From: Phylloscopus collybita
Taxonomy: Eukaryota; Chordata; Aves; Passeriformes; Phylloscopidae
Reading direction: 5' to 3'
Assembly: GCA_027886175.1 (NCBI GenBank)
Contig: JAJNNQ010000077.1
Location: 5,828,001 to 5,892,000 of the forward strand
Length of the DNA: 64,000 nucleotides
Below are positions 9,518 to 48,460 of the stretch, in pieces (within the stretch, counting starts at the first letter, position 1; every line of letters begins with the position of its first letter). The translations under genes were made by a program, and so were the position numbers. Below the pieces are notes generated by a model. It was given only the letters and a program-made list of their open reading frames with translations, was not told the origin of the DNA and did not search any database.

Positions 9518-10771
9518 TTGGGCTCTAACTCTGGGGCCTGTGACTCGCACTGGTGCCACATTGGAACTGTTTGTCCTCATCTCCTCCCTCACCCCCCTTA
9601 TCTCTTCTTTGAGTTCTTTAACCACGGCAGAGATATGAGCCTGCATCGGGCCATTGATCATACCCTCATAATTCCTAAGCTTATTGGCAACAGACCCCAC
9701 TGTCTCTCGATTGTCCTCAGCATTAATTGTTGCAATAAAGGTGGTGTACTGAGATGGCCCTAGATTTGCCAGATTCCACAACATCTGCCCTGTGCATTTA
9801 ACCTTGTCAGGGTCATTATCATGCTGTCCACTCCTCCCAAAAAGTACCTCCAGCACCGCCACTTCCCTCAGCTGCTGGATCCCTTCCTCCAGAGTTTTCC
9901 AGCGCATTCTATGGTGGTGCTCCTGCATTCTTTCTTTGTGGATAAATCTCTCTCTCACACTCATTAAAAGCCGCTCCCAAAGGGAAAGGGGTCCTGGCTC
10001 TCTTACAAATACCTGATTTATACCTGAGTCCTGGGTCAAGGGTCCCAAATTCCTTGCCTCACCACTGTCCAATTGCACCCCAGTACCCATGAGGTCCCAA
10101 ACCCGAAGTAGCCAGGCTGTGTAAGCCTCACGCCCCCGCCGTACAATATCTTTTTGCAGGTTACGGAGACTTTCATACGACAGGGACTCGGTGATGATCT
10201 GAACATGTGATTCCCCTGCAGATTGTGAGGGCCCTCCTTTCTTATTGTCTGGGTTTGCTGTTTTCACCTTAGATTTCTTTGTTTCCACAGGGGCAACTGC
10301 CGCTGGCTGTGACTGCCCCTGTGGTTCAGCTGGGACCTGAGCAGTTGTAATCTCTGTGGGTTTCATTGCTGCACCATCAGACTCTCTTTTGTCAGGGCAG
10401 GGGAAGGATTTCCCACTAGCTGGGGAAATGTACTCCCTCAGCATCTGGCTCATCTTTTCTTGCATCTCCTTAATCAGAGCCCCCACCCAAACCGGGTGGT
10501 TTATCTCTGAGGCAGGCTGTGGGGCAGGAGCGGACTCTTGGGCAGCATTCTTATTCTCTGGGGTACTTATTAAGGTGCTTACCCAGGCCAATTTCCCCTT
10601 ATCTCTGAATGCCAAACAGAACAGGCATACCAGCAACACCAGCCACTGTATGATATCATTAGCACTCAGAGATTTCAACCCTTCAAAAACTGGTGGGGTG
10701 AACCCAAAAAACTGTGTGAAGGGCTGGGAGAAAATTTCCCCTGGTGCCATTTCCTCACAGATAGGTACCAT
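9518..10771 (-). CDS. gag: ERV-A Gag-like protein, 418 aa
   Basis: Open reading frame directly downstream of the 5' LTR, PBS and leader, in the same frame as pol. The N-terminal 60 residues include a hydrophobic segment around residues 40-55 (IIQWLVLLVCLFCLAF). A Pro/Gln/Lys-rich linker follows, then a helical C-terminal half ending in a charged coil. No CCHC zinc knuckle was seen, as is usual for ERV-L and spuma-like Gags. Identification rests mainly on position. The stop is the TGA at 9515-9517; upstream Met choice is uncertain. A minus-strand leader of about 300 bp (10772-11072) precedes it. Confidence 0.65.
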
Positions 10772-11072
10772 TGTTAAAGTAACCCCAGAAGCACAGAGTT
10801 AGCCTATGATAGCTATGAATCCATGTGCTTGCTTTCCAGAGGAAGTTAAAAATCCATGAATTTCTCACCTTATTAATCCACAAAATAAACTGGATGCCAG
10901 CCACAGTAGCCTTAGTCATAGGACCCATATTTACATAAGGAGTAGCAAATGGCAGAAATACAGCCACCACCACGTGCCACCCAAACCAGGGAAAACTAGA
11001 CCACATTATTCTGGCCAGTGGGCTTTTATCTAATATGCAAGAACTGTTATTCCTCTCTCTCAATGCCCTCGT

Positions 11073-12143: not shown

Positions 12144-15100
12144 ATAGAGTTTTTAATTGATACAGGAGCAACATATTTGGTATTGAACAAAGCCTTGGTG
12201 CCTGTGGGTAGGGATTATGTTAGGGTACAAGAAGCTACTGGCCGAACAGAAAAGGCTTATTTCTGTAAACCCTTAAACCACAAATTTGGGAAAGAGTGGG
12301 GTACTCACAAATTTTTATATGTGCCAAACTCTTCAAAGGCTCACCTGGGAAGAGATTTATTAGAGCAACTGCAAGCAACCGTTATGTTTAAGGATGGGGA
12401 AATTATTCTGGAGGTAAATGATGAATGATATGTGGAAGTGTTAAGTTTAATATTGACAATCATTGAGGTTGAGGAGGAAATTTGTGAAGAAATAGTTAAC
12501 CAGGTGTTCCCTGGAGTCTGGGCTTCCAATGTGCCAGGAAGGGCAAAGAACACACCTCCTATAGCAATTAACCTCAAGGAAGGAAAACAACCAGTCAGGA
12601 TCAAGCAGTACCCTTTGAGAAAAGAGGATAGAGAAGGAATTAGGCCAGTAATTGAAAATTTCCTACAACTAGAACTGCTAAAGGAATGCCAATCTGATTT
12701 CAACACTCCTATATTACCTGTCCGGAATCCTGATGGGTCATATCGAGTGGTTCAAGACTTACGGCCTGTTAACAAAATAACTGAGGATCTCTACCCAGTG
12801 GTGGCAAATCCATATACTTTGTTGACATGCTGAACACCAGAGTTAACTTGGTTTACTGTTCTAGATCTGAAAGATGCCTTCTTTTGCCTCCCTCTCCATG
12901 AAGCCAGTCAGAAAATTTTTGCCTTTGAATGGAAGAACCCTAAAAGCAGGCATAAAACTCAGCTCACATGGACAGTCCTCTCCCAGGGGTTCAAGAACTC
13001 GCCCACTTTGTTTGGGGAACAACTTGCAAAGGACCTAGAGGCCTGGGTGATCCCACCAGAGGAAGGAAAGCTGTTGCAGTATGTGGACAACCTCCTCATA
13101 GCCGCTCGGACTAAAGAAGCATGTGTGTCATGGACGGTGAGTCCATTAAACTTTTTGGGGCTCCAGGGGTACAGGGTGTCAGAGAAGAAGGCTCAGGTGG
13201 TGAAGCAAAAGGTAATTTACCTGGGGTACGAAGTTAGTGCTGGACAAAGGACTCTAGGGCAAGACTGTAAAGAAGCAATATGCCAAACCCCACAACCTTG
13301 GACAGTGAAAGAACTGTGAACCTTTTTGGGAATGACAGGATGATGTAGATTGTGGATCTACAACTATGGGCTGCTTGTCAAACCTCTGTATGCAGTCATC
13401 ACAAGTAAGTACAAAGATCTTCAGTGGACCAAGGAAGCCACCCGAGCCTTTTCCCAATTAAAGGACACCCTTATGTCGGCTCCAGCCCTAGGACGTCCGG
13501 ACGTGAGTAAACCATTTTTTCTGTTTTCCCATGAAAAACAGGGGATTTCCCTGGGGATGCTAGCACAGAACCTAGGCCCATACCGAAGGGCAGTTGCCTA
13601 CTTATCCAAGCAGCTAGATGCAGCCGCCAAGGGATGGCCAGGGTGCCTCAGGGCTGTAGCAGCCATCGTGATGAATATCCAAGAAGCACGTAAATTCACC
13701 TTGGGCCAGAAAATGACTGTGCTGGTGTCTCATACAGGGTCTGCAGTACTGGAAGGGAAAGGTGGGCACTGGCTTTCTCCTGAAAGATTTTTAAAATACC
13801 AAGCCTTCATGGTAGAACAAGATGATGTGGAAATCGTGGTAACTAATATTATCAACCCAGCTTCTTTTCTCAGTGGGAATCAAGGAGAACCAGTGCAACA
13901 CCACTGTCTGGGAACCATCAAAAACACCTACTCCAGTCATCCAGATTTGAAGGACACCCCTTTCAACAACACAGAAACTTGGTTTACTGATGGGAGTAGT
14001 TACATCATCAATGGAAAGCAACATGCTGGGTATGCAGTTACCACCAGTAAAGAGGTAATAGAATCTGGTCCTTTACCAACAGATACCTCTGCACAGAAGG
14101 CTGAGATAATTGCTCTGAGTTGTGTCTTTGAGATGGCAAAAGGGAAGAAAATAAACATCTGTACAGACTCGAGATATGCCTTTGGAGTTGTGAACGCACA
14201 TGGAGCTATCTGGAAAGAAAGAGGACTATTAAATTCACAAGGGAAGAACATTAAACATGCACAAGAAATAATGAGACTGTTGGAAGCAGTTCAGATGCCT
14301 GAGAAAGTAGCAATCATGCACATTAAGGCACACCAAAGGGTGAGCTCGGAATTGAAAGAGGGAAATGAACTGGCAAACAGAGACACAAAAGAAGCAGCAA
14401 AAGATGAAATAACAATTGAAGGAACTTTGATTCCAGATGGACAGATATCCCTTGAAGGTAAGCCAGTATACAGTAAGAAAGATAAGGAGCTTATTGAGGA
14501 TCAAAAGGGAACATATAACCAGGAAGGGCGGGCCATTACTGAGGAAGGGAAATTGGTTGTCCCCTGCCACATATTACGGCCCTTAGTAAGAAAGGAACAT
14601 CAGAAAACACACTGGGGAATGGGTGCTCTATATAATTATCTAATTGAAAAGATTACTGCTAGAAATTTGTATGCCACCGTCACTCAGGTAACCAGGCAGT
14701 GTAATCTTTGCCTCCAGACTAACCCTAAGAATACCCCTAAACCAAAACTTGGTCACATTGGAAGAGGACAGGGGCCTGGGCAGCAGTGACAAATTGACTT
14801 TTCATAACTTCCAAGAAAAGGGGGATATCGATATTTGCTGGTGTTAACAGATACCTTTTCAGGGTGGCCAGAAGCTTTCCCCACCAGAACTGCCAAAGCC
14901 CAGGAGGTAACCAAAATATTATTGCAAGAAATAATAGCATGCTTTGGAGTTCCAGCCACAATGTCCTCAGATAGAGGACCACATTTTATCTCAAAAATAG
15001 TGCAGCAAGTAAGCCGCCACTTGGGCATAGACTGGGAATTACACACTCCATACCATCCTCAGCCTAGTGTCCAAGTAGAGAAAATGAATCATTTAATTAA

Positions 15101-15602
15101 ACAGCAAATTGTGAAGCTAAGGCAAGAAGTTAATTTGCCCTGGCCCCAATCTCTCCCATTGGCATTGCTGCGAATCCAAACTAAGCCAAGGATTCAAGAA
15201 AAGTTAAGCCCCTTTGAAATGCTTTATGGAAGGCCATAGGGGGTGCAAAAGGGAATCTCTACTGAAGCTGGGGAAGAGACACTGACCACCTATCTGGTGG
15301 CCCTAAGTAAACAACTTAGAAAAATTGGAAAATATGTGGCTGGAACTCAGAGCAGAGGGCTAGATGGACCTGTGCATAATATACAGCCTGGGGATTATGT
15401 GTCTGTTAAATCTTTTACAGACAAAACTCTGGAAGCACAGTGGGAAGGACCATTCCAAGTGTTACTTACCACCTTCACTGCAACTAGGATTAAGGAATAG
15501 AATGCCTGGATTCATCATACACGAGTGAAGAAGGCCCCAAGAGCCCCTTGGAAAGCAACACTGGGTGATAATGAACTGAGACTTAAACTTACTTGGGAAA
15601 GA
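12144..15602 (+). pseudogene. pol: ERV-B pro-pol, decayed
   Basis: Protease, RT, RNase H and integrase of a gamma-like ERV in a single frame with no frameshift over 3.4 kb. The protease shows LIDTGAT. RT has DLRPVN, VLDLKDAFF, LSQG (for LPQG) and YVDN in place of the catalytic YVDD. RNase H keeps FTDGSS and CTDSR, but ANRD replaces the usual ADR, losing another acidic residue. Integrase has H-H-C-C (ending CNLC) and the DDE set (LTDT, SSDRG, VEKMN). Internal stops lie at 12426, 12831, 13317, 13341, 14787, 14805, 15237 and 15498. At least two look like TGG to TGA and one like CGA to TGA. Old and non-functional. Confidence 0.9.
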
Positions 15603-17676
15603 TGAATGGACTTTGGGTAGAAATGTTAACTTGGAAAGCTCTATCTCTTATGATGGCAGTTATAGCTGTAACCGAAATTAATGCAAGACTGCGTGTGCAC
15701 CACATGTTTAGGAGAATTTTTTGTCAGGGAAAGGCTTATGATGCCTACTCTTGCAAAATGCTGAACCAGATGCTGAAGGTTACCAGTGCATCTGTCTGGG
15801 AAGGGAAAAATGTTTGGGGTTGTGAATATGCATTTGTTCAGGATGGATTCCATGAATCTCACCAAAATCCTATTCAGCTAATTCAGATTGATTCTGGATG
15901 CTGTGAGACCTGCTTATCTACCTGTCCTGAATTTAGACTTAAAATAGAGGGATGTGCAATCAAGGTTTATAGCTTGGATTACAATATTACTCAGGATTGT
16001 GTTGTACCTCACGATGAGGGGGTAGTAAATCAGCCAACCCAAAAACCAGAGGAGACCACAGCTCATGTTCAAACCACCCCAAGGAAAATGATTCAGCCTA
16101 TAGTCTCCAAAATTGGACCTTATGCAATTAAGAAAGTAGGGATCCAAGACTGTTACTAAATCCAGAGTGGTCCTTGAAGTAAGTAGAGATGGAAATACAA
16201 GTAAATGCTTCTGCCATTTGATCAGAGTGTGCCCAATTCCTTAAAACTTCCTTTATGGATTGGACCATTTGGTTACAGAACCACTTCCAACAAAAGACAG
16301 ACCTTACAGGAGTATTAGGAACAGGACTGGGGATCTTGAATACAATGGACTCAGAGGTACTAATGAACAACTTGGCTGCAGCTGGCAGTGATGTGGTTAA
16401 ATTACAACAACCCTTACAATCTTCTTTACTAGCCCTAGGTACCAGTCAATGGAAACTGTCCAAAATATTACCAGAATGGGAAGGGATACAAGAACAAGAT
16501 CATAGACTAGTAGTAAATGCTATAGGGACAGCTAGTGAGAATACGTCTCTGGCCCTTGGATGCATACAAGCACAGTTATGGATGCAATCAGTAGCTCCCT
16601 CAATTATCAGGGAAGGTAGTGGAGGCACGTTCCCTGCTGAGGTCCGGAAAATTGTTTGGGACCATGCTTCTGATTTAGAAAGAGAACTCCAGCCATGGTG
16701 GTTCTTAGTTAACTTCACCTATGATCCTGTAACAAGCATGGTAACGGCCTTTGTTTTAACGATACATAATGCATCAGTGAGTCTGATACACCCAATAGTT
16801 GCCTTAGGACTAAACCATGAAGGAACCATCCTATATCCTTCGAAACACAGGAGGTGGGCATGAAAAGTGGAAGGGAAATGGAGGACGTTATGGAGGACAA
16901 ATAGAGAACTCTATTAGCATAGAGTCCTGTGCCGTGAGAAGACAATTAGGGTTCATATGTGAAAGGAATATAAACAGTGATCAGGATACCTGTTTGGACA
17001 CAGAACAAAGTATTTGTCACTTTGAAGTACACTCAACCATCAGACAACCTTTCTGGTATACATAGGCCAGGGTTGTGTGTGTCTCAGGACACCATGTCCC
17101 ATGATAATGGAGGATGAACTAGTCATAAAGGAAACCAAATCCAATCTGTGCATCTGCAACTTTGTCAGAATCGAAGGACGTGATTTTTCTTATCTGGCAC
17201 CAGTAGTATCCCATCAGTATATAAAGGCAAATCTGACTACTATGCAAGAAATATCACCTGTGGCCATAGGGATGAATTTGACCTTGGTTAAACAGCTATT
17301 GAGGCATGAGGATTTAAAGGAAATTCTGAGGGAAATTAGGGATATGGGAAAAAGGACTCTGATTACTATATACCGTGACACAGAAACCATAGGAAGGGTC
17401 TTTAAAAGAATGGAAACAGATGCATCTCATCATTGGTGGGATACACTTTTTGGATGGTCACCAAAAGCAACTGGGCTCCTCAGTGTAATAATTCCTCTAA
17501 CTATTGTTTTATTAATTCTGGTTAGAGTAAGTCTGATCCTGTCCATTGTAATGCTTCTTTGGAATTGGAGGATGCTACAACGAATGGCAGCACCAACTTC
17601 ATTGTCAAAGGTACATGGTAACACATTAAGGGGTGCATATTGGAGGAACGGAGAAAAGAATTTTTGTATTAAGTAA
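15593..17676 (+). pseudogene. env: ERV-B env, decayed
   Basis: Envelope region overlapping the end of pol. A first ORF (15593-16159, 188 codons) begins with a hydrophobic leader-like stretch and has a Cys-rich SU-like part with a CETC motif. After a frame change and a stop at 16219, the frame opens again at 16255-16863 (202 codons). Another frame follows at 16817-17065, then 17077-17676. The last part has a long hydrophobic segment (about 17468-17560), fitting the TM anchor, and a short basic tail. No CX6CC motif was seen. At least two frameshifts and one nonsense codon break it. Confidence 0.75.
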
Positions 17677-17695
17677 AAGAATTTACTTATTTTCT

Positions 17696-17955
17696 AGAAA
17701 TTGGGGGACTGAAACAAGGGATTTGAGGGTTAAAGGGAATTCCAGAATAGCTGAGGTCATGTATATGAACACGTAGGATTCATTATCTTGCTTTCCAAAG
17801 ACTGAAAGAAAATGAAGAGATAAGGGGCCCTTCAAAGGACACCTGGTTCCTATTAAAAAGTTTCTGAGCTTGCAAAATAAGAGGGGGCCCCTTTGTAAAA
17901 CTGGGGGGAACATCTCGGTAAAGAGGGAATACACATGCAGAGACCTCATCAGGTG
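17696..17955 (+). repeat. ERV-B polypurine tract and start of 3' LTR
   Basis: After env comes GAAATTGGGGGAC (17697-17709), a PPT-like purine run, then TGAAACAAGG at 17710, a plausible U3 start. The 5' LTR is absent, so the LTR end cannot be fixed by comparison. 17955 is a guess and the LTR may run to about 18060. Confidence 0.5.
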
Positions 17956-23207: not shown

Positions 23208-24140
23208 ATGTCCAACAGCAGCTCCATCAGCCACTTCCTCCTGCTGGCATTGGCAGACAGGTGGCAGCTGCAGCTCCTGCACTTCTGCCTCTTCCTGGGC
23301 ATCTCCCTGGCTGCCCTCCTGGGCAACGGCCTCATCATCAGCGCCGTAGCCTGCGGCCACCACCTGCACAGCCCCATGTTCTTCTTCCTGCTCAACCTGG
23401 CCTTCACTGACCTGGGCTCCATCTGCACCACTGTCCCCAAAGCCATGCACAATTCCCTCTGGGACACCAGGAACATCTCCTAGACAGGATGTGTTGCACA
23501 GGTGTTTCTGGTTTTCTTTTTCATCTCAGCAGAGTATTTCCTGCTGACCATCATGTGCTACGACCGCTATGTGTCCATCTGCAAACTCCTGCACTACGGG
23601 ACCCTCCTGGGCAGCAGAGCTTGTGCCCACATGGCAGCAGCTGCCTGGGCCAGTGCTTTTCTCAATGCTCTCATGCACACAGCCAATACATTTTCCCTGC
23701 CCCTGTGCCATGGCAATGCCCTGGGCCAGTTCTTCTGTGAAGTTCCCCATATCCTCAAGCTCTCCTGCTCACACTCCAACATCAGGGAACTTGGGCTCAT
23801 CGTGCTAAGTGCTTTTCTATTTTTTGGCTGTTTTGTGTTCATGGTTTTCTCCTATGTGCAGATCTTCAGGGCTGTGCTGAGGATCCCCTCTGAGCAGGGA
23901 CGGCACAAAGCCTTTTCCACCTGCCTCCCTCACCTGGCCGTGCTCTCCCTGTTCCTCAGCACTGCCATGTTTGCCTACCTGAAGCCCCCCTCCATGTCCT
24001 CCCCATCCCTGGATCTGTCCCTGTCAGTTCTGTACTCAGTGGTGCCTCCAGCCCTGAACCCCCTCATCTACAGCCTGAGGAACCAGGAGCTCAAGGCTGC
24101 AGTGCGGACACTGGTCACTGGATGGTTTCAGAAACATTAA
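23208..24140 (+). pseudogene. OR-1: OR14-like olfactory receptor, single nonsense codon
   Basis: Seven-transmembrane odorant receptor, one coding exon, 310 codons plus stop. Start MSNSSSISHF matches the two intact copies in this window (an in-frame ATG 5 codons upstream is not shared). Family landmarks are present: LLGNGL in TM1, SPMFFFLLNLA in TM2, MCYDRYVSIC at the end of TM3, FSYVQIFRAVL in TM5, KAFSTCLPH in TM6, PALNPLIYSLRN in TM7. The only break is TAG at 23481-23483 (codon 92), where the paralogues have Tyr in the first extracellular loop; the frame is otherwise open to 24140. A recent pseudogene or segregating null allele. AATAAA lies at 24171. It is the inverted counterpart of OR-3. 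Confidence 0.93.
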
Positions 24141-26439: not shown

Positions 26440-27015
26440 CAGCTAGCTCTGGAACTTGCAGCAGCAAAGTTTTCCAAATTTTCCAAACTCCCGTAAAAAA
26501 TTCCCCAAAATGAACCCTAGATTTACCCCAAAATTTCCCTCAAATTCTCCAAACCTCCCAAATTTCCCCAAATTTTCCCCTGAATTCCCCAAAATCTCCA
26601 AAAATTCCTGAGTTTTCCTCTGAATTCCCCAAATTTTCTGAAATTCCCCAAAGTTCCCCCCAAATTCCCCAATATCTCCCAAAATTCCTCAAAAATTTCC
26701 TCTGAATTCCCCAAAGTTTCCTACATCCCCCAAAATGACCCAAAATTTCTCTAATTTTTCCCTTAAATCCCCCAAAATCTCCAAAATTTCCCCCAAATTT
26801 CTCTCTAAATCTCCCAAGTTTTCTCTAATTTCCTCCAAAATTCCCCTCAAATCCTCCAAAACCTCCCAAAATTCCCCAAAACTTCCCCAGATTCCCTCAG
26901 ATCTCCCAAATCCCACCAAACGTTTCTCAGAATTCCCCAAATTTTCCTAAATTCCCCCCAAAATCCCCCAAAATGACCCCAAAATGACCCAAAACTTCCA
27001 TCAAATTCCCCAAAT
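26440..27015. repeat. AAATTCCCC-type minisatellite
   Basis: Degenerate array of ~20-bp units built on CCCCAAATTTTCC and AAATTCCCC. One strand is strongly pyrimidine-biased with alternating A and C runs. The inverted counterpart is 47740-48460. Confidence 0.85.
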
Positions 27016-27072
27016 ACAAAGGAAGGGTACATACTATCTCCCAATGGGAGACAAGGTGGGAGTGGAACAGGG

Positions 27073-27498
27073 TTGGAGGGACATGCAGGGGAGCAAATGA
27101 GGGTGCCTGGGGAGGGATCCCCTCTGTCCTTGCCCTATCACTCAATGCTCCTCTCTGAACTTTCTGGAAGCTGGGAGGAGCAGCTGGGTGACAGACAAGG
27201 CCCAGAGGAGGGGGCTGGGGAGAGAACAGAAGGAGGATTGACAACTGGAACAGAACTGTCAGGGAAAGAGAGGGGAGACAAGGGAACAGACCATCAAACA
27301 GAATATAACAGGGAGCAAAACCAACGACACGATACAACACTTCTTGAGGCAGTACAGTCTGAATCTGGGCTCTTTCCTCCTTTCTCTCTCTTTCAGGGAA
27401 GAATCAGCCATGGGCGACGGAATCCTGGTGCTGATGGCCGTGGTGGGCATCAACTAGCCACTGTCTGGGTTTTTTGCCATTCTCCTCTGCCCCTTTAA
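27073..27498 (+). CDS. Hypothetical 141-aa ORF conserved in both arms
   Basis: Open frame of 141 codons, hydrophilic and Glu/Gly/Arg-rich, with no recognised domain. The inverted copy at 47255-47680 encodes a protein of identical length differing at about five positions. The arms are so similar that this does not prove selection. Inside it, on another frame, a pyrimidine tract and AG (27395-27396) precede a strong-context ATG (27410) opening a 15-codon hydrophobic peptide MGDGILVLMAVVGIN with TAG at 27455-27457. That piece could be the remains of a 3' exon. Coding status is doubtful. Confidence 0.2.
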   Translation: MEGHAGEQMRVPGEGSPLSLPYHSMLLSELSGSWEEQLGDRQGPEEGAGERTEGGLTTGTELSGKERGDKGTDHQTEYNREQNQRHDTTLLEAVQSESGLFPPFSLFQGRISHGRRNPGADGRGGHQLATVWVFCHSPLPL

Positions 27499-27609
27499 GG
27501 AGTTTTCTAAAGTCTTATTTTTAGCCTTCTGTGTTTATCTTTTTCTAATGCAGTCAGACACAATTTTATATAAACAAACTTTTTGTTCTTGTAAAATCTA
27601 ACCATGTTT

Positions 27610-28085
27610 ACACTCTTTTCCCTTGACAAGCTGGATCCAGGGCCCAAATCCAACAACGTCAGGTTGAAGAAGACCAAGGGCCAGGCCCTGCACTTTGGCC
27701 ACAACAAGCCCTGCAGTGCTACAGGCTGGGGACAGAGTGGCTGGACAGCAGCCAGGCAGAAAGGGACCTGCAGGGACTGATGGACAGCAGGCTGAACATG
27801 AGGCAGCAGTGTGCCCAGGTGGCCAAGAAGGCCAATGGCTCCTGGCCTGTATCAGGAATGGTGTGGCCAGCAGGAGCAGGGAGGTCATTCTGCCCCTGTG
27901 CTCGGCACAGGTGAGGCTGCACCTCGAGTGTTGTGTCCAGTTCTGGCCCCTCAGCTCAGGAAGGACAGTGAGACGCTTGAGCGCCTCCAGAGGAGGCAAT
28001 GAGGCTGGTGAGGGGCTTGGAACACAACTCCTGTGAGGAATGACTGAGGGAGCTGGGGTTGTTTAGCTTGGAGAAAAGGAGGACA
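27610..28085 (+). mobile_element. CR1 LINE fragment (3' part)
   Basis: Contains the characteristic CR1 3' region in sense orientation: GGACAGAGTGGCTGGACAG, CACCTCGAGTGTTGTGTCCA, then CCTCCAGAGGAGGCAATGAG and GAGCTGGGGTTGTTTAGC. The upstream end encodes the C-terminus of the CR1 RT ORF in broken form. Inverted partner at about 46670-47130, related copy at 37160-37760. Confidence 0.85.
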
Positions 28086-28308
28086 AAAAACCCCAACATT
28101 TTAAAAAATATATAGTATATTATTATTGAATGCATTTCTGAAATCTGTACCATGAAACCACAGAAGAGTTGAAGACTTGAAATGAAATTATTCCCAGGGG
28201 CTTTTCTTGTTAGAGTGCTTTGGAATGTTAATGAGCCTTTGGCACTGAATTCCTGAACTGAGGAGCTGAAGACTGAACAAGCCTCTGGAGAGCGAAAATT
28301 CCACAGGG

Positions 28309-28705
28309 TGTTGCCTGAAGTTTTGGGTTTTCGGTGTTTCATTCTAATGAGCAGGCTGTCTGCTCATCACCGGGTGTGGGAGCTGGGTAGTTTGGGTTTC
28401 GGCGGGATTCACAGCTTCAAGGACACTCTTCCTCAGCTCCGGGCCCCCAAAGACAAACAACGGAGAAGGATAGAACATCGTCATCGTCATCTGGAGTGAT
28501 TGATTGGACAACGAACGGGGCATGTGCAAAATGGACTGGAATCTAGAAAAAGGGGGGGTGCCGGGAACTCGGTCTCCTTTTGACTTGCATGTCGGAGCAA
28601 CCCCAGGCAGCTGTGGCAGCTGCCGGGGCTGGCCTTGAAGGCCAGGAATAAAATTTATGGCTGCCTTACCCTAGCTCAGCGTCTGCCCTGTTGTCTCAGG
28701 CAACA
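28309..28705 (+). repeat. Provirus ERV-C (RIMBP-carrying) 5' LTR
   Basis: 397 bp, TGTTGCCTGAAG to CAGGCAACA. It differs from 32815-33212 by about six substitutions and one 1-bp indel (~98% identity). AATAAA lies near 28649, followed by TTTATGGCTG. It abuts the end of the inverted-duplication arm. Confidence 0.93.
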
Positions 28706-28708
28706 GTC

Positions 28709-28726
28709 TGGTGACCGCGGCAAGAC
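28709..28726 (+). promoter_or_regulatory. ERV-C candidate primer binding site
   Basis: TGGTGACCGCGGCAAGAC, 3 nt after the LTR. The first eight bases equal those of the tRNA-Trp PBS of avian alpharetroviruses; the rest matches only in part (about 13 of 18). A decayed tRNA-Trp-type PBS is my reading. Confidence 0.55.
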
Positions 28727-28996
28727 AGGGGGGGTTGAAGCTGCTGGGAACCCTAGAGATCTTTTTTCGTCTTATCGGCGGAGGTCCAGGCACCGGCACA
28801 AGAACCCTTTGAGGCAGGGCACGTGAGTGAGTCACCTGATCGGGGGTAAAGGGGCGGCTCGTTCCTTGTTCAGCATCCGGGTTTATTGCTGGGATCTTTG
28901 TGAGATCTGGTGCAGATTTAGGGGGAGATTTTGGAGTTCCTAGTTTGGCCTGGGGAAGGTTTGCCTCCCTATCAGGCTGCTGAGAGTCCTGAGGCC

Positions 28997-29069
28997 GAAG
29001 TGTGGCGCAGGGGATAGCTATCTGGGCTGTAGTTCGGAAGGTTGCGAGTTCAAATCCCAGCTCAGGAGT
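28997..29069 (+). ncRNA. tRNA-like (Arg-type) sequence in ERV-C leader
   Basis: Has an A box (TGGCGCAGGGGATAGC) and a B box (GAGTTCAAATCCC) at tRNA spacing. It resembles tRNA-Arg around both boxes. The T stem pairs poorly and the acceptor stem is not evident, so it is a decayed or tRNA-derived sequence and not a working tRNA. It lies between the PBS and the gag start. Confidence 0.45.
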
Positions 29070-29094
29070 GAATGCTTTTGTTTGGGATATCGGA

Positions 29095-29920
29095 ATGGGT
29101 TGTGCATACTCTAGTGACCGTGGTAGTAAATCAATCCCTAGGGACAGCCCCCTGGGCTTAGTATTGAGAAACTGGACTAAATGGGTTGGGGAGGAGTCCC
29201 ACTTACAAAGCCTAAATTGATTAGGCTTTCGGAGGCCATATGGCAAACATATAGGTTGGGTAATGGAGAGGTGTGGCCTCAATTTGGGAGCTTAGACAAA
29301 GGGTTGATATCTAGCCTAATGTCATGTTTGTGTGGGGATAGGTGCTTCGAGGAACTGAAATATGCCAGGTTGTTTATGGTGTTAGCTTGCGAAAGAGCTC
29401 GGGATAGTAAGAAGGGGAATATAATGATAGCATGGAGAAAAAAGGAAAAGCCATTTCTCTGCAGCGTGGGTAACAAGGATCAGCCAGAGGACCCTAGTGG
29501 CCCCTGTGCTGAGAGCTGGGTCTGGCCAGGGGGCGGCTGCCCCCCTGCCGCCGCCGCCCTATTCACAGACAAGGGGTCGGCCGGACCCTCGGGCTGGGAA
29601 GAGGGAGGAGGAGGGGTTTCGGCACCGAACACCGTCTCCATCCTCATCCACTTCGCCCCCCCTGAAGGGCTGAAAAAAAGGGGGGCAAGGGGCAGCGGCA
29701 GCAGCCTCTGGCCCCATCCCGAAAAAGGGGGGCCAAGGACAGAGAATATCCCAGGGACAGCACAGGCTGGACAAGTTGTAGGCGGAGGGAACACTCCCCC
29801 AATCCCGGGCCCGTTCCTTACCATAGCAATTCCGAAGGTCAAGGAGCTGTTTCTGGAGATGATGTAATCAGAAGCAAACAGACAGCAGATAGAGCCTGTC
29901 GTACCCATAGCCTGACATGG
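29095..29920 (+). pseudogene. gag: ERV-C gag 5' part (matrix and linker), frameshifted
   Basis: Starts MGCAYSSDRG, a good N-myristoylation signal (Gly2, Ser6). The matrix-like region switches frame by one base near 29180-29190 and continues through an alpha/beta/lenti-type matrix pattern (WGG..LTKPKLI, then NGEVWPQFGSL, about 29190-29300). A Pro/Gly-rich linker follows until a stop at 29867. Just before that, near 29860, the frame changes again into the one that runs on through the acidic segment into the RIMBP fusion (see 29921). Two frameshifts make it non-functional. Confidence 0.7.
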
Positions 29921-30889
29921 ATGGGGAGCAGAGCTACGCTCTTAACAGAATCTGATAGCTCTTGCTCAAGCAGTTCTGAAGACGAGAAAAGTGAGGAAGA
30001 AACAGACGAAATTGCAAACAGATGTAGGAAGGGGAAAATAGCAAAGAGAGCTATCAGAGAGCAAAGCCCAATTGCCAGGCGCACCAAGAAAGGGAAGTAC
30101 AAAGAAAACCCAGACAAGGTAGCCCAATTAAGGGAGAGGGCAATTAATTCCCAAAATCCTGATTGGATTGACTTAAATCCCATGCTCGACACATTACTCG
30201 ATCCCACGAAAAAACGAATGGTCCATAGAGCTATCACCACTTATGTTGAAGGGGGCATAGCCAGTAGAATGCTTCAGAGTACTGTCACTCCAATCTCTCC
30301 CTCCAATTTTGTTGGGCGAGTTGCAGATGATGACCTCGGGACATTTCTGCCTCCGGAGCTGAATGATTTCTCCCATAACTCATACCAAGAGAAAAGTTTA
30401 GTCAGTGCAAGCACTAGCAGTGGAGATAAGAGTGAGTTCTCCGTTGAAGAGAGTAGCATCAGTCTGTTGGGCAGCAGAGCAAAAAGAGACCAGGAAGAGC
30501 CCGTTAGTCACACAGCAGTGCCTTACCCAAGAAAACTGACTTTTATCAAGCAGCCTGCCAGAAGCATAATTGTAAGCTGGGAACCACCTCTTTTGCCAGC
30601 TGGCTGCCCAAAGATACAAAGCTACAACATCTATGTGGATGAAGAGCTACGTCAGAATGTGAAGAGTGGCCTTCAGACCAAAGTAGTGATGGAGAAGCTG
30701 GATTTATACAGCAGGCCTTACCGCATATCCGTGCAGGCGGTGACAGAGCACGGCACAGCTGACGCAAGAGTGCGATGTCACCAGGCCGAGTGTGTACTGG
30801 TACACCTTCCGCAGCCTGCAGCCCAGCGCACATTACGTGGCCAAGCTGCAGGCCCGACCCATGAAAACTCCTTGGGAAGAGGTGCCTGA
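29921..30889 (+). CDS. ERV-C Gag-RIMBP fusion ORF, 322 aa
   Basis: Residues 1 to about 123 are Gag-like: an acidic Ser/Glu segment, a basic segment, then WIDLNPMLDTLL, like the start of a retroviral capsid. From about residue 124 the protein becomes a RIM-binding protein: PSNFV with an acidic tail, as at the end of the first RIMBP SH3 domain (124-145), a Ser-rich spacer, then a fibronectin type III domain (about 201-287; VSWEPPLLPAGC, YNIYVD, YRISVQAVT). After about residue 287 the frame departs from the RIMBP frame and ends at 30889. RIMBPs link RIM and voltage-gated calcium channels at synaptic active zones (family knowledge). Exons are joined without introns, so the source was a spliced transcript. 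The frame is open about 20 codons upstream of the Met used here. Confidence 0.75.
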   Translation: MGSRATLLTESDSSCSSSSEDEKSEEETDEIANRCRKGKIAKRAIREQSPIARRTKKGKYKENPDKVAQLRERAINSQNPDWIDLNPMLDTLLDPTKKRMVHRAITTYVEGGIASRMLQSTVTPISPSNFVGRVADDDLGTFLPPELNDFSHNSYQEKSLVSASTSSGDKSEFSVEESSISLLGSRAKRDQEEPVSHTAVPYPRKLTFIKQPARSIIVSWEPPLLPAGCPKIQSYNIYVDEELRQNVKSGLQTKVVMEKLDLYSRPYRISVQAVTEHGTADARVRCHQAECVLVHLPQPAAQRTLRGQAAGPTHENSLGRGA

Positions 30890-31775
30890 GGGGCAGGAGT
30901 GGGGCTCAGCCGTGATACACTTCACTACCCCTCTAGCAGGCACACCTGATGCTCCTTTGGGTGTCCAGGTAAAAGCTGGTCCCTCTCCAGGTATCCTAGT
31001 TATCAGCTGGTTGCCTGTCACCATTGATGCAGAAGGATTTTCCAACGGGGTGTGGGTGACTGGATGTGTCATGTATGCTGACGGTCAGAAGGTAATTGAT
31101 GTTACTTCTCCAACAGCTAGGAGTGTCCTAGTGGACTTGTTCCAGCTTCAGATGTTCCAGGTCTGCCGTGAGGTTTCTGTGTGGAGGATGTCTCAGTACG
31201 GGGAGTCCGTAGATTTGGTTCCAGCCCAGAGTTCCTCGGTCCTGCTGCGACCCCCGCTCTGCAGCTCCTCTGTGTGCAGCTCTGTCCCCTGCAGAGTGCC
31301 CCGGGGGGGCCCCAGGCCCTGGCTGCCTGGCCGCAGCCTGCAGCACACGCCCATGCTCCCCCTCCGACAGGAGACTCCTGCTGAGAGCTCAGATGCCAAA
31401 TGGACTGATCCCTCCTCCAGCCCTGTGGGCTCACCACGGCCCCTGACAGGGAAAGCCTCTTCCCTACCACACCTCCCATCTCCTAGTGCTTCCTTGGTGC
31501 AGGCTCCAGGCACTGCCCCACAGGGGTCGGATGCTATGAGAGGCAAGAAATGCCTGAGTGGTCTTCCCCAGCAGGCTGGCACAGTGATCCCAGAGCAGGG
31601 CACGGAGCCCGGCCCCTCCCAAGAACTGGGATTGCAGCAGCCAGGTGAAAAGACAGAGGTTCAGATGAAAGCAACAGGTTGGGAACAATCTGTGCTGTTG
31701 GGTTTGTATTTGTACCAAGTTTTGCCAAGTATAACCGGGATATCAAATGTAAGACTTGAGACAAGTTACGCATGA
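30787..31775 (+). CDS. RIMBP-derived ORF, second half (FN3 domains and linker)
   Basis: A 327-codon frame overlapping the end of the fusion ORF in a different frame. It starts within the second FN3 domain (YWYTFRSLQPSAHYV, through about codon 45), then carries a complete third FN3 domain (about codons 50-146; VISWLPV, CVMYADGQK, GESVDLVPA). A Pro/Ser-rich linker of about 175 residues follows, like the stretch before the second SH3 domain of RIMBPs. The N-terminal half of FN3-2 is missing, so the frame jump at 30787-30792 may be an internal deletion of the captured cDNA. The C-terminal SH3 domains are absent. There is no conventional ATG at the beginning (GTG at 30792), and it may be unexpressed without frameshifting. 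The paralogue (TSPOAP1, RIMBP2 or RIMBP3) is not resolved. Confidence 0.75.
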
Positions 31776-32802
31776 CAACTGGGAGGGGAAGAACTAACAT
31801 GATGAAAGGGTGGCCTTCTCTTACATTGCCAAAGTGCCTGTCATCAAATAGGCCATCTCTGTGAGGAAGGGCTGGCTGTCAGCTTTCTTCTTTCAGTGAA
31901 GTCTGGAGTGGGAAGTCTTTTTATTTTTTCCCTGCTATTAGTAAACATTTCTATCATAGATATATTATGTACACATAATGCTGGGGTAATGGTCTCAATG
32001 GACGAGACAATACGCTGCTTTCTCACTCTTTTGCCCCTACTTTCTCTCCTACCTCCAAGGCTTTTGACTTCTAAAATACTATATTAGCTTTTGTCTTTAG
32101 TATTAAGTCTGAGAACAAGAAGTATAGATTTAATTTCTTTAAGGTTCTTTGGCTGTTTTTCTGTGTGAAAATGAATGCACCAGATGAAATTAGTTTAGAG
32201 TTCCCCTTTTTCCCTGTTGCTTGGCTTAACAGGCTGTTTTAAGTTCCAGTTTTACATGACTTTGACAATATGCTTAATTTGCAAAGGTCTTTCAAGAATA
32301 AGCATTGGTTAGTTGAGTATTGCTCACTTGGATAGTGAATTAATACGATGTTAAGCAGTAATGAAAGCTGGAATTTTCTGTTAAAATGAGACATACCATT
32401 TAGATGTCAGGATTATTGGGAATCTATTATAATAATTTTGCAGTGAATTTACTAGTATGTAGTATTGTATGTATAGGCCTTATTTGACAAGTGACTTCAT
32501 AAAACTGCACAGTTGTTTTGGCTAACAGAAATTTCCAGTGCAAATACTGTTGTTCTTACAATTTGGAATTAGATTTTTTAAACTTCTGAATTGTCAAAGA
32601 AGGGAAACATTTTTGAAAAAAAAAAAACCACATGTAAATTAATCCCAAAGTCTTACATGTAACAAATGTTCATCTGATAGGCAGTATTGTTGTTGATAAC
32701 TACTTATCTATCATTAAGTGTTACTGTGTTATCTATCACTAAGTGTTACTGTTATTGTATTTGGGTAGAGACTGGACAAGGTAGAGGTCTTGTCAAGTCT
32801 CT
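31776..32802 (+). other. AT-rich non-coding segment of ERV-C
   Basis: About 1 kb between the RIMBP stop and the PPT, with no long ORF and no pol or env similarity seen. Composition and position fit a captured 3' UTR or viral 3' non-coding DNA. A short duplication of TATCATTAAGTGTTACTGT-like words lies at about 32707-32755. Confidence 0.5.
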
Positions 32803-32814
32803 AAAAGGGGGGAC
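32803..32814 (+). promoter_or_regulatory. ERV-C polypurine tract
   Basis: AAAAGGGGGGAC immediately before the TGTTGCC start of the 3' LTR. It confirms plus-strand orientation. Confidence 0.8.
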
Positions 32815-33212
32815 TGTTGCCTGAAGTTTTGGGTTTTCGGTGTTTCATTCTAATGAGCAGGCTGTCTGCTCATCACCGGGTGTGGGAGCTGGGTAGTTTG
32901 GGTTTCGGCGGGATTCACAGCTTCAAGGACACTCTTCCTCAGCTCCGGGCCCCCAAAGACAAACAACGGAGAAGGATAGAACATCGTCATCGTCATCTGG
33001 AGTGATTGATTGGACAACGAATGGGGCATGTGCAAAATGGACTGGAATCTAGAAAAAGGGGGGGTGCCGGGAACTCGGTCTCCTTTTTGACTTGCATGTC
33101 AGAGCAAACCCCGGCAGCTGTGGCAGCTGCCGGGGCTGGCCTTGAAGGCCAGGAATAAAATTTATGGCTGCCTTACCCTAGCTCAGCATCTGCCCTGTTG
33201 TCTCCGGCAACA
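32815..33212 (+). repeat. ERV-C 3' LTR
   Basis: 398 bp, TGTTGCC to CCGGCAACA, about 98% identical to 28309-28705. The following bases CTGGG compare with CAGGG before the 5' LTR, four of five, so a target duplication is possible but not proven. The flank beyond is a different ERV and not the sequence expected from the duplication arm. Confidence 0.93.
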
Positions 33213-33957
33213 CTGGGACTACTTTGGGGAGGTGGGCTATGGGGGAAACACAACTCATCATCACTATCACTACTACACGGGTATGGTGATTTGGCAGGTG
33301 AGGGAATAGGCTGCTCAGTCTTTTCCTTTCCTAGGGGAACTGAGGTGGGGGTTAAGTGGGACAATTCTCTTCAACCCGTTTCTTCCCTTCATCTACCCTG
33401 CCTTTAGGAGGTGATCTGAACAGATCTGCTAACTCCTGTTCTTGCTTTTCTGCATGATGGACTTTATCAGGCTGTGTGCACCTCTGGTTTATAGAGCAGG
33501 CATCACAGCATTGCCTGGGTTTCCCTCTATTAGCCTTGTTGTCTTTTTCCAAAGCTAGTACAAAGGGGTCAGAGGGAGGTTTAATCCCATAACTTCTCTG
33601 CCATTCTGGATGGTTTTGGAAGAACAGAAGCACATATCAGCATAGGTCACCTCCTCCCATTTTTCCTCCCTTCTTAGAAATAACATCAGCTGCAGTAAGG
33701 TACCCAAAGATATCCAAATCCTTGGGCTCCAAATTTTTCCCACAGACTAGACTCACTATCTGACACTGATCATGTGCTACTTCCCAACTATAGTATCTCG
33801 GGAGCTCTGGGATACACTTGGGGCATCTAGGTCTTCTTCTGTGGGATAGACAAGACCATCTCCTTTTGCACCCTCTGCAGCAGAGAAGGACCCAACTTGG
33901 ATGCCATCCTGGTTCCCAATGAGAAATTGTCAGCCCACACACAATGCAAGGGGTCAC
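33213..33957 (-). pseudogene. gag: ERV-D Gag N-terminal fragment
   Basis: Minus-strand reading frame from a Met at 33957, 106 codons to TGA at 33637-33639, then in the same frame for 93 more codons to 33352. The N-terminus is Cys-rich (CIVCG, CCRGC, CPKC), which could bind zinc. After the stop comes FFQNHPEWQ and DPFVLALEKDN, resembling avian ERV matrix regions in my judgement. Downstream sequence is lost at 33213, where the ERV-C LTR ends. Classification as Gag is an inference from appearance and from the surrounding retroviral DNA. Confidence 0.45.
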
Positions 33958-39334: not shown

Positions 39335-40279
39335 TTAGGTAGCAGTTAAATGTTTCTGAAACCATCCAGTCATCATTGTCCACATTGCAGCCTTGAGCTC
39401 CTGGTTCCTCAGGCTGTAGATGAGGGGGTTCAGGGCTGGAGGCACCACCGAGTACAGAACTGAGAGGGCCAGATCCAGGGATGGGGAGGACATGGAGGGG
39501 GGCTTCAAGTGAGCAAATATTATTGTGCTGAGGAACAGGGAGACCACGGCCAAGTGAGGGAGGCAGGTGGAAAAGGCTTTGTGCCGTCCCTGCTCAGAGG
39601 GGATCCTCAGCACAGCCCTGAAGATCTGCACATAGGAGAAAACAATGAACACAAAACAGCCAAGTGCTAAAGAGATGGAAAATACAATGAGCCCAGCTTC
39701 CCTGAGGTAGGAGTCTGAGCAGGAGAGCTTCAGGATCTGTGGGATTTCACAGAAGAACTGGCCCAGGGCATTGCCATGGCACAGGGGCAGAGAAAATGTA
39801 TTGGCTGTGTGCATGAGAGCAATGAGAAAGGCACTGGCCCAGGCAGCTGCTGCCATGTGGGCACAAGCTCTGCTGCCCAGGAGGGTCCTGTAGTGCAGGG
39901 GTTTGCAGATGGACACGTAGCGGTCGTAACACATGATGGTCAGGAGATAGTACTCTGCTCCAAGTAAGAACAGAAAGAAGAAGAGCTGTGCAGCACATCC
40001 TGAATAAGAGATGTTCCTGGTGTCCCAGAGGGAATTGTGCATGGCTTTGGGGACAGTGGTGAGGATGCAGCCCAGGTCGGTGAGGGCCAGGTTGAGCAGG
40101 AAGAAGAACATGGGGCTGTGCAGGTGGTGGCCGCAGGCTACGGCGCTGATGATGAGGCCGTTGCCCAGGAGGGCAGCCAGGGAGATGCCCAGGAAGAGGC
40201 AGAAGTGCAGGAGCTGCAGCTGCCGCCTGTCTGCCAATGCCAGCAGGAGGAAGTGCCTGATGGAGCTGCTGTTGGACAT
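39335..40279 (-). CDS. OR-2: OR14-like olfactory receptor, intact, 314 aa
   Basis: Class A odorant receptor of olfactory sensory neurons, coupling to Golf (family knowledge). Intact single exon. N-glycosylation site NSS at residue 3. TM1 with Asn40 in LLGNGL; SPMFFFLLNLALTD (55-68) in TM2; MCYDRYVSIC (116-125) after TM3, with Asp119-Arg120-Tyr121; conserved loop Cys95 and a Cys cluster at 167, 177 and 187; FSYVQIFRAV (214-223); KAFSTCLPH (234-242); PALNPLIYSLRN (281-292). Length is normal for the family. The start was chosen because all three copies share MSNSSSI. Upstream, CTGCAG at 40303-40308 gives a possible 3' splice site. An out-of-frame ATG precedes the start. Tail LTAT extends 4 residues beyond OR-3. 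Confidence 0.96.
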   Translation of the reverse strand: MSNSSSIRHFLLLALADRRQLQLLHFCLFLGISLAALLGNGLIISAVACGHHLHSPMFFFLLNLALTDLGCILTTVPKAMHNSLWDTRNISYSGCAAQLFFFLFLLGAEYYLLTIMCYDRYVSICKPLHYRTLLGSRACAHMAAAAWASAFLIALMHTANTFSLPLCHGNALGQFFCEIPQILKLSCSDSYLREAGLIVFSISLALGCFVFIVFSYVQIFRAVLRIPSEQGRHKAFSTCLPHLAVVSLFLSTIIFAHLKPPSMSSPSLDLALSVLYSVVPPALNPLIYSLRNQELKAAMWTMMTGWFQKHLTAT

Positions 40280-40330
40280 TTCCTGCCCCTGGACATTCTA
40301 ACCTGCAGAAGGACGAAATACAGGGACATC

Positions 40331-46450: not shown

Positions 46451-46669
46451 TCCCTGATGAATTTCAGCTCTCCAGAGGCTTGTTCAGTCTTCAGCTCTTC
46501 AGGAATTCAGTGCCAAAGGCTCATTAACATTGCAAAGCACTGTAACAAGAAAAGTCCCTTGAAATAATTTTATTTCAAGTCTTCAACTCTTCTGTGGTTA
46601 ATTGTACAAATTTCAGAGGTGTATTCAATAATAATATACTATATATTTTTAAAAATTTTGGCATTTTTT

Positions 46670-47130
46670 TGTCCTCTTTTTTTCCAGGCTAAACAACCCC
46701 AGCTCCCTCAGCCGTTCCCCACAGGAGTTGTGTTCCAAGACCCTCACCAGCCCTGTTGTCTCCTCTGGACACTCTCAAGCGTCTCACTGTCCTTCCTGAG
46801 CTGAGGGGCGAGAATTGGACACAGAACTCGAGGTGCAGCCTCACCAGTGGCAAGCACAGGTGAAGAATGACCTACCTGCTCCTGCTGGCCACACCATTCC
46901 TGATCCAGGCCAGGAGCCATTGGCCTTCTTGGCCACCTGGGCACACTGCTGCCTCATGTCCAGCCTGCTGTCCATCAATGCCCCAGGTCCCTTTCTGCCT
47001 GGCACTGTCCAGCCACTCTGTCCCCAGCCTGTAGCACTGCAGGGGTTGTTGTGGCCAAAGTGCAGGACCCGGCCCTTGGTCTTGTTCAACCTGACATTGT
47101 TGGATTTGGGCCCTCAATCCAGCCTGTACA
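46670..47130 (-). mobile_element. CR1 LINE fragment in right arm
   Basis: Reverse-strand copy of the CR1 piece at 27610-28085 (GGCTAAACAACCCCAGCTCC, then CCTCTGGACACTCTCAAGCG). Duplicated with the arm. Confidence 0.85.
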
Positions 47131-47254
47131 GGGAAAAGAATGTAAACATCATTAGATTTTACAAGAACAAAAAGGTTGTTTATATAAAATTGTGTCTGAC
47201 TGCATTAGAAAAATGTAAACACAGAAGGCTAAAAATAAGAATTTAGAAAACTCC

Positions 47255-47680
47255 TTAAAGGGACAGAGGAGAATGGCAAAAAACCCAGACAGTGGCTAGT
47301 TGACACCCACCACGGCCATCAGCACCAGGATTCCTTCGTCCATGGCTGATTCTTCCCTGAAAGAGAGAGAAAGGAGGAAAGAGCCCAGATTCAGACTGTA
47401 CTGCCTCAAGAAGTGTTGTATTGTGTCGTTGGTTTTGCTCCCTGTTATATTCTGTTTGATGGTCTGTTCCCTTGTCTCCCCTCTCTTTCCCTGACAGTTC
47501 TGTTCCAGTTGTCAATCCTCCTTCTGTTCTCTCCCCAGCCCCCTCCTCTGGGCCTTGTCTGTCACCCAGCTGCTCCTCCCAGCTTCCAGAAAGTTCAGAG
47601 AGGAGCATTGAGTGATAGGGCAAGGACAGAGGGGATCCCTCCCCAGGCACCCTCATTTGCTGCCCTACATGTCCCTCCAA
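47255..47680 (-). CDS. Hypothetical 141-aa ORF, right-arm copy
   Basis: Counterpart of 27073-27498, same length, about five residue differences and no stop. The nested splice-site and ATG arrangement is also present: AG at 47357-47358, ATG at 47343, TAG at 47296-47298, peptide MDEGILVLMAVVGVN. No known domain. Coding status is doubtful. Confidence 0.2.
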   Translation of the reverse strand: MEGHVGQQMRVPGEGSPLSLPYHSMLLSELSGSWEEQLGDRQGPEEGAGERTEGGLTTGTELSGKERGDKGTDHQTEYNREQNQRHNTTLLEAVQSESGLFPPFSLFQGRISHGRRNPGADGRGGCQLATVWVFCHSPLSL

Positions 47681-47739
47681 CCCTGTTCCACTCCCACCTT
47701 GTCTCCCATTGGGAGGTAGTCTGACCCCTCCCTTTGTAT

Positions 47740-48460
47740 TCGGGGAATTTGATGGAAGTTTTGGGTCATTTTGGGGTCATTTTGAGGAGTTTTGGGGGAA
47801 ATTTAGTTAAATTTGGGGAATTCTGAGGAAAATTTGGGGGGATTTGGGAAATCTGAGGGAATTTGGGTGAAGTTTTGGAGAATTTTGGGAGGTTTTGGAG
47901 TATTTGAGGGGAATTTTGGACGAAATTTCAGAAAACTTGGGGGATTTGGAGGGAAATATGGGGGAATTCTTGGAGATTTTGGGGGATTTAAGGGAAAAAT
48001 TGGAGAAATTTTGGGTCATTTTGGGGGATGTAGGAAAATTTGGCAAATTCAGAGGAAAACTTTGAGGAGTTTTTGGAGATTATAGGGAATTATGAGGAAA
48101 TTTTGGGGAATTTTTTTAAAATTTGAGGAATTTGCGGGGTATTTTGGGGGAAATTTCAGAAACTTAGGGGAATTTGGGGGACTTTTGGGTCATTTGATGT
48201 CCTTTTGGGTGATTTTAATGGAAATTAAGTAAATTGGGGTAATTTGGGAAGAATTTTGGGGAATTTGGGAGGAATTGAGGAAAATTAGATGAATTTTGAG
48301 GAAAACTTTGAGAAATATTGGGAGATTTGGGGGAATTTGGGGGAAATTTTGGGGAATTTCGGGAGGTTTTGGAGAATTTGAAGGGAATTTTGGGGTAAAT
48401 TTTGGGGTTCATTTTGGGGAAATTTTGAGGGGAATTTGGGAAATTTGGAAAACTTGGCTG
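47740..48460. repeat. GGGGAATTT-type minisatellite (right arm)
   Basis: Inverted copy of 26440-27015 and about 145 bp longer, so the array changed length after duplication. The purine-rich strand has GGGGAATTTTGGGG words. Confidence 0.85.

What the first reader, a model, noticed from the sequence alone, without database searches (positions are those of the whole stretch)
28309..33212. A provirus that has captured a host RIM-binding protein (RIMBP) cDNA
Seen: two ~98% identical LTRs (397/398 bp), a PBS-like site, a tRNA-like leader, a partial gag, then ~1.5 kb encoding the tail of an SH3 domain and FN3 domains typical of RIMBPs, then a PPT and LTR. No pol or env is present. RIMBP genes are multi-exon, so continuous coding across SH3 tail and FN3 domains implies a spliced transcript. 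Established: acutely transforming retroviruses have this layout (LTR, partial gag, host cDNA, LTR). Inference: an endogenised transducing retrovirus carrying a synaptic scaffold gene. I know of no description of such an element.
Basis: partly seen in the sequence, partly recalled or inferred. Interest (0 to 1): 0.9.

Follow-up and report, generated by a model that had tools for sequence, protein, structure and literature searches.

The report
Bird retroelement carrying two host-gene pieces
In a bird genome, a virus-like jumping element has picked up part of the spliced message of a nerve-cell scaffold gene (TSPOAP1), later also picked up the tail of a splicing-factor message, and spread the package to about a dozen places, some of them apparently very recently.

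Summary
Window 28309-33212 is one of 17 loci in this genome where a gammaretrovirus-like LTR element carries spliced TSPOAP1 (RIMBP1) sequence. The parent gene lies on another contig with its introns. All 17 copies skip the introns as far as they reach and share one in-frame gag junction at a 5-nt microhomology. In the 15 that reach it, the 3' junction lies exactly at the exon C/D boundary. TSPOAP1-less relatives looked at already lack env, so capture probably occurred in an env-less element, not an infectious virus. Eight copies have 4-bp target-site duplications. LTR pairs differ by 0-3.9% (one probably recombinant pair 6.7%). Six copies, including the window's, share a 3' flank and stem from one insertion. 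The captured frame is broken in 14 of 17 copies, including the one with identical LTRs; purifying selection is not clear. Best reading: a non-autonomous passenger element mobilised in trans by gag-pol relatives. Host-gene capture by ERVs is known; seven text searches listed no report of this family.

The parts
28309..28705 (+). 5' LTR (397 bp)
   Evidence: direct repeat of 32815-33212; 374 first-look LTR candidates in the genome, 40 scored
28709..28726 (+). primer-binding-site-like stretch, tRNA-Trp-like
   Evidence: 10 of first 11 bases match the complement of recalled tRNA-Trp
29002..29056 (+). tRNA-Trp-like stretch in the leader with A-box- and B-box-like motifs
   Evidence: score 54, best of 1000 shuffles 36; no Rfam or ARAGORN tRNA
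29095..29570 (+). gag matrix remnant, broken over two frames
   Evidence: tblastn with finch gag P0014 at 29131-29181 and 29193-29384; no Pfam hit; end coordinate approximate
29819..30298 (+). gag p12/N-terminal capsid, in frame with the host part; internal capsid deletion near 30091-30097
   Evidence: tblastn with P0009-P0014; genome search; weak PDB matches to gag/capsid P30 chains, E 0.31-0.37
30297..30302 (+). gag|TSPOAP1 junction at a 5-nt microhomology (TCCCC), in frame; the window copy differs from it by a point change
   Evidence: junction lined up in 17 of 17 copies, the host gene and 4 gag-bearing relatives; TCCCC itself stands in the 4 early-branching copies
30299..30939 (+). captured TSPOAP1 exon A from the SH3 tail through FN3-1 and part of FN3-2; 143-bp deletion at 30763/30764
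   Evidence: 92.7% and 91.7% to L018; deletion in this copy and C32:4.269, not in the other 15
30940..31091 (+). captured TSPOAP1 exon B
   Evidence: 89.5% to L018; intron between A and B in the gene absent here
31092..31664 (+). captured TSPOAP1 exon C, ending exactly at the exon boundary
   Evidence: 90.4% to L018; intron between B and C absent; gene reads GTTCGG|GTAAGT
31665..31751 (+). retroviral segment after pol, probably the start of env (signal-peptide-like; inferred by eye)
   Evidence: present in TSPOAP1-less relatives, joined directly to the 32657-32814 part
31752..32656 (+). second host capture: sense 3'UTR of an SR splicing-factor gene
   Evidence: 92.7% and 89.3% to C18:34290862-34291950; the C18 match begins about 43 nt after an SR-type reading frame and ends about 20 nt before AATAAA
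32657..32814 (+). retroviral 3' region with polypurine tract at 32803-32812
   Evidence: shared with TSPOAP1-less relatives
32815..33212 (+). 3' LTR (398 bp)

Best explanation
This is one copy of a non-autonomous, gammaretrovirus-like LTR element. An already env-less gag-pol ancestor acquired a spliced fragment of TSPOAP1 mRNA by template switching during reverse transcription. The fragment replaced the rest of gag and all of pol and was fused in frame to capsid. Later a derivative acquired 3'UTR sequence of an SR splicing-factor gene in the same way. The RNA keeps LTRs, leader and polypurine tract and was copied and integrated in trans by gag-pol relatives; the host pieces are mostly passengers. 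Shown: intron-free joins, shared junctions with microhomology, separate insertions with target-site duplications, the order of events, open pol frames among relatives. Inferred: co-packaging, trans-mobilisation, env loss before capture, passenger status.
For: Parent gene on C22 in exon pieces; 17 of 17 copies follow the spliced reference as far as they reach, the closest full one at 95.2% over 1509 nt without gaps. One 5' junction in 17 of 17 and one 3' junction in the 15 of 17 that reach it; TCCCC shared by host and relatives at the 5' join, ATGGA shared by host exon D and relatives at the 3' join. Second insert absent from 4 copies and from 4 of 4 relatives looked at; ATGTA shared at its 3' join. 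4-bp target-site duplications in 8 of 15 copies with both LTRs. Host-rooted tree nests the copies. In 2 of 11 pol pieces (of 23 TSPOAP1-less gag loci listed) one unbroken frame of over 1,150 codons runs to within about 60 nt of the short 3' segment, leaving no room for env; the pol of one relative is nearest to 4hkq (RT/RNase H p80; XMRV, recalled), E 3e-143.
Against: Copies read ATGAA (one ACGAA) where relatives read ATGGA, so the strict overlap at the 3' join is 3 nt or less. At the 5' join 13 of 17 copies no longer read TCCCC in full. Of the 8 target-site duplications, two lie in C- or CT-rich sequence and one needs two changed LTR bases. No expression, packaging or mobilisation data. Relatives with env could exist among unscored LTR candidates (40 of 374 scored). 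The duplicated cluster that includes the window has no target-site duplication, and near-identical flanks (99.9%) could partly be haplotype copies. Some tree nodes have low support (0.24-0.80). Two full-length copies and one truncated copy keep the frame open. LTR identity can also come from gene conversion.
Confidence: 0.92

Rival explanations
1. A LINE-made processed retrocopy of TSPOAP1 landed inside a provirus and was then carried along.
For: The host part is intron-free, and LINE retrocopies are common in general (recalled).
Against: It starts in mid-exon and ends at an exon boundary, shows no poly(A) and no evident flanking duplication in the printed junctions, and stands in place of capsid with an in-frame microhomology join. 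Two unrelated host messages are joined to the same element.
Confidence: 0.03
2. An infectious transducing retrovirus captured TSPOAP1 and was endogenised afterwards.
For: The layout LTR, partial gag, host cDNA, LTR is that of acutely transforming retroviruses (recalled).
Against: The basal complete TSPOAP1 copy (C127:1.322) shares the env-less 3' join with TSPOAP1-less relatives, so env was probably lost before capture.
Confidence: 0.08
3. The captured frame encodes a Gag-TSPOAP1 protein that was kept because it helps the element or the host.
For: In-frame gag fusion; open frames across the junction of 223+539 and 262+532 codons in two copies, and 148 (cut by the fetched edge)+565 in a third whose host part is truncated. 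One neutral model gives P 0.02 for singleton changes.
Against: Shared changes N:S 37:19 and singletons 54:30 against neutral 2.3-2.9 (one-sided P 0.02-0.33). The copy with identical LTRs already holds 2 stops in the host frame. 14 of 17 copies are broken.
Confidence: 0.1

Closest known systems
CrocERV31 (nectin3) and CrocERV29 (KIT-ligand), crocodilian ERVs (PMC4299795; abstract and two sections read)
   Same: Multi-copy ERV groups carrying a captured spliced host mRNA; nectin3 capture at the expense of env
   Different: Different ERV groups and hosts; there purifying selection on the captured frames is reported, though in Alligator sinensis no copy keeps a complete nectin3 frame. Here the host piece is a gag fusion in place of pol, most frames are broken, and a second host message was added.
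Acutely transforming retroviruses, including those with two host genes (recalled, e.g. avian erythroblastosis virus)
   Same: LTR, partial gag fused in frame to host cDNA, no pol or env, helper needed
   Different: Germline element, probably env-less at capture; no known oncogene; one captured piece is non-coding 3'UTR; transformation not testable
Patch insertions and non-homologous recombination of packaged host RNAs (PMC4997597; passages read)
   Same: Host RNA inserted by reverse-transcriptase template switching at short microhomology
   Different: Here fixed in a germline and amplified to many loci

Membership tests
Gammaretrovirus-like (class I) ERV | LTRs with TG...CA ends | tested here: met
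   window copy; a few other copies have altered end bases
Gammaretrovirus-like (class I) ERV | 4-bp target-site duplication | tested here: met
   8 of 15 copies with both LTRs; absent in the 6-copy duplicated cluster that includes the window, not found in 1
Gammaretrovirus-like (class I) ERV | gamma-type pol | tested here: met
   not in this element; in one relative, best PDB match 4hkq RT/RNase H p80 (XMRV, recalled), E 3e-143, RVT_1/RNase_H/rve
Gammaretrovirus-like (class I) ERV | gamma-type capsid | tested here: inconclusive
   window piece matches PDB gag/P30 chains only at E 0.31-0.37 and no capsid Pfam; its homologue P0010 carries PF02093
Gammaretrovirus-like (class I) ERV | tRNA primer-binding site | tested here: inconclusive
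   Trp-like over 10 of first 11 bases, recalled tRNA
Host-gene-transducing retroelement | spliced host sequence between retroviral sequences | tested here: met
Host-gene-transducing retroelement | same virus-host junction at several independent insertions | tested here: met
   17 of 17 copies; 11 with flanks unlike the duplicated cluster
Acutely transforming retrovirus | cell transformation by the captured gene | not testable with these tools
   no assay
Acutely transforming retrovirus | arises from an infectious, env-bearing virus | tested here: inconclusive
   relatives and the basal complete copy share an env-less 3' end; env-bearing relatives not exhaustively sought
LINE processed retrocopy | poly(A) tail and flanking duplication around the retrocopy | tested here: not met
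   no poly(A) and no duplication evident in the printed junctions; no systematic search for a duplication

The most novel reading that the evidence does not exclude
An env-less germline retroelement keeps assembling its genome from host messages: a Gag-TSPOAP1 fusion protein made from still-open copies, plus an SR-factor 3'UTR that serves as a borrowed RNA export or stability signal and explains the success of the lineage with both inserts, which includes the copy with identical LTRs.
Probability: 0.1. Interest if true: 0.82.

Novelty: new variant of a known kind. Interest (0 to 1): 0.66.

Why it matters
Capture of host genes by retroviruses is best known from tumour viruses selected for their oncogenes (recalled). 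Here capture can be followed in a germline without that filter: the source genes, the junctions, the microhomologies, the order of two captures and the dated insertions are all in one genome. It suggests that env-less elements can capture messages with no evident benefit, that such hybrids spread while their reading frame decays, and that two unrelated messages can accumulate in one element.

Tried and rejected
The TSPOAP1 locus itself flanked by solo LTRs: rejected, the parent is on C22 with introns. A four-residue match (EQSV) between the window after exon C and a pigeon exon D (P0018): dropped once the retroviral relatives explained those bases. The 0.9-kb AT-rich part as a retained intron of TSPOAP1: rejected, the search reports no match on C22 and does report C18 (40 of 84 candidates scored), and the gene's intron after exon C reads differently. 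A full tRNA gene in the leader: not supported by ARAGORN or Rfam.

Led nowhere: protein-database searches for other fused reading frames (14 hits, and, 3 hits; sequences opened: none holds both gag and TSPOAP1); viral contigs and phage collections with the 162-residue host piece (none); a genome search with the tRNA-like leader (not completed).

Text searches: seven on the subject and one on mechanism. In the listings, which are capped, no title or abstract start describes TSPOAP1/RIMBP in a retroelement. PMC6523648 was searched for five terms only (one passage, a reference). Most subscription journals and preprints are not covered.
Full report
What is there. The window lies at C79:5828001-5892000 of a 1.25-Gb genome; gag relatives from Zosterops, Hirundo, Mimus and Haemorhous suggest a songbird, which is an inference. 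The element has two LTRs 98.2% identical, a Trp-like primer site and leader stretch (against a recalled tRNA), gag remnants in three frames, a host-derived part, and a polypurine tract. No pol or env was seen in it.

Which gene, and is it a cDNA? Protein hits name TSPO-associated protein 1 or peripheral-type benzodiazepine receptor-associated protein 1, i.e. TSPOAP1 or RIMBP1 (P0038-P0040). The parent gene in the same genome is at C22:1459835-1464365, minus strand, in separate exon pieces. Exon A stops at CAG|GTAC, exon B is bounded by CACAG| and |GTAC, exon C by GCAG| and |GTAAGT. I joined the three host exons and compared 17 copies: all follow the spliced reference as far as they reach. Fourteen run to within a few bases of the end of exon C; C9 does so after an internal gap of about 129 nt; C26 ends in exon C and C59:17.703 in exon B, so that one shows only the A-B join.

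One capture event. In 17 of 17 copies the gag|TSPOAP1 junction is at the same place (C6 has a small change just before it). Four of four TSPOAP1-less relatives continue with capsid sequence there, and 5 nt (TCCCC) are shared by those relatives and the host; the four early-branching copies still read TCCCC, the others have point changes. The join is in frame. At the other end, the 15 copies that reach it pass from the last base of exon C straight into retroviral sequence. Host exon D begins ATGGAGCAAC and relatives read ATGGAAGCAAC, so 5 nt are shared there too, although the copies read ATGAA (C9 ACGAA), a strict overlap of 3 nt or less. This fits template switching on a spliced message; PMC4997597 (passages read) describes that mechanism for packaged host RNAs.

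A second capture. The AT-rich stretch 31752-32656 is absent from four TSPOAP1 copies (C30:1.321, C6, C127, C9) and from four of four TSPOAP1-less relatives looked at, and present in 11 copies; in the stretches fetched for C26 and C59:17.703 the 3' region was not found. The only other match reported is C18:34290862-34291950 (40 of 84 candidates scored). That match starts about 43 nt after an arginine-serine-rich reading frame and ends about 20 nt before AATAAA; an upstream frame of the same strand has an RRM end whose best PDB match is an SRSF6 construct, E 1e-9 over 35 residues. I call it the 3'UTR of an SR splicing-factor gene; the exact paralogue is open. Four copies outside the duplicated cluster hold about 185-190 bp of it that the window lacks, while C59:5.818 has its own internal gap.

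Loss of env before capture. In TSPOAP1-less relatives the segment that corresponds to 31665-31751 is followed directly by the 158-bp 3' part. I fetched pol pieces from 11 of the 23 TSPOAP1-less gag loci listed; in 2 of 11 one unbroken frame of over 1,150 codons ends within about 60 nt of that segment, which leaves no room for env there, and shows that enzymes able to act in trans may exist. The basal complete TSPOAP1 copy, C127, has the same 3' join. Hence env was probably lost first. LTR loci were scored only in part (40 of 374), so env-bearing relatives are not excluded.

Spread and age. Fifteen of 17 copies have both LTRs. Eight have matching 4-bp flanks, two of these in C- or CT-rich sequence and one (C9) counting two changed LTR bases. 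Six, including the window, share the 3' flank: the other five match it at 93.5-99.9% over 0.8-1.1 kb. They stem from one insertion that was duplicated, or are partly haplotype copies; they have no target-site duplication, and one has a probably recombinant LTR pair (K2P 0.067). For C59:5.818 no duplication was found, and two copies lack a 3' LTR in the fetched stretch. LTR K2P values otherwise run from 0 (398 of 398 identical) through 0.0025 to 0.039. With a recalled rate of 2-3.3e-9 per site and year, 0.0153 for the window gives 2.3-3.8 million years, a figure blurred by exchange within the cluster. The host-rooted tree (node support 0.24-1.0) places C127 and C59:17.703, which lack the capsid deletion, at the base, then C26 and C9, then the rest.

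Does the captured frame matter? Against the host, dN/dS is 0.30-0.66 in 17 copies, a value that includes the constrained host branch. Among 12 copies taken as independent (11 plus one representative of the duplicated six; the other 5 dropped), changes shared by two or more copies are 37 nonsynonymous, 19 synonymous and 1 stop; singletons are 54, 30 and 6; 48 codons with more than two states and 4 with double hits were left out. Neutral expectation is 2.3-2.9 to 1; one-sided P values range from 0.02 to 0.33 depending on model and class. So weak constraint is not excluded. Yet 14 of 17 copies have a stop or frame-breaking gap in the host frame, and the copy with identical LTRs has 2 stops, which suggests that its template already carried them. 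Two full-length copies keep the frame open across the junction to the end of the host part, and a truncated one as far as its host part goes. I read the host pieces as passengers, at about 0.85.

Novelty. ERVs with captured KIT-ligand and nectin3 are known in crocodilians (PMC4299795: abstract and two sections read). New here, as far as seven text searches show, are TSPOAP1 as cargo, two host messages captured one after the other by a probably env-less germline element, and a dated series of copies.

Noticed in passing
window 27000-28308 and 46452-47753: The 5' flank has an inverted duplicate at 93% that lacks the insertion, but its sequence beyond the site does not match the 3' flank, so one of the two sites was probably rearranged.
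   Followed up: partly
window 6062-10798 (-): ERV with an 844-codon open frame holding RT and RNase H domains; neighbouring frames look integrase- and gag-like by eye.
   Followed up: no
window 12282-17700 (+): Second ERV, with RT similarity to swallow P0012 and an RNase H frame; frames at 15.6-17.7 kb look env-like by eye, but Pfam gave no env hit for the one tested.
   Followed up: no
window 39335-40297 (-), 51256-52215 (-), 23484-24140 (+): Olfactory-receptor-like reading frames in an ERV-rich duplicated region (identification by eye).
   Followed up: no
window 33627-33740 (-): gag matrix-like fragment on the other strand just beyond the 3' LTR.
   Followed up: no
L018 3836-3943: A decayed partial copy of exon C lies in the TSPOAP1 region downstream of exon C (74%).
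   Followed up: no
window 29002-29056: The leader stretch resembles the likely primer tRNA (Trp, recalled); it may be a tRNA copied into the element during reverse transcription (inference).
   Followed up: partly
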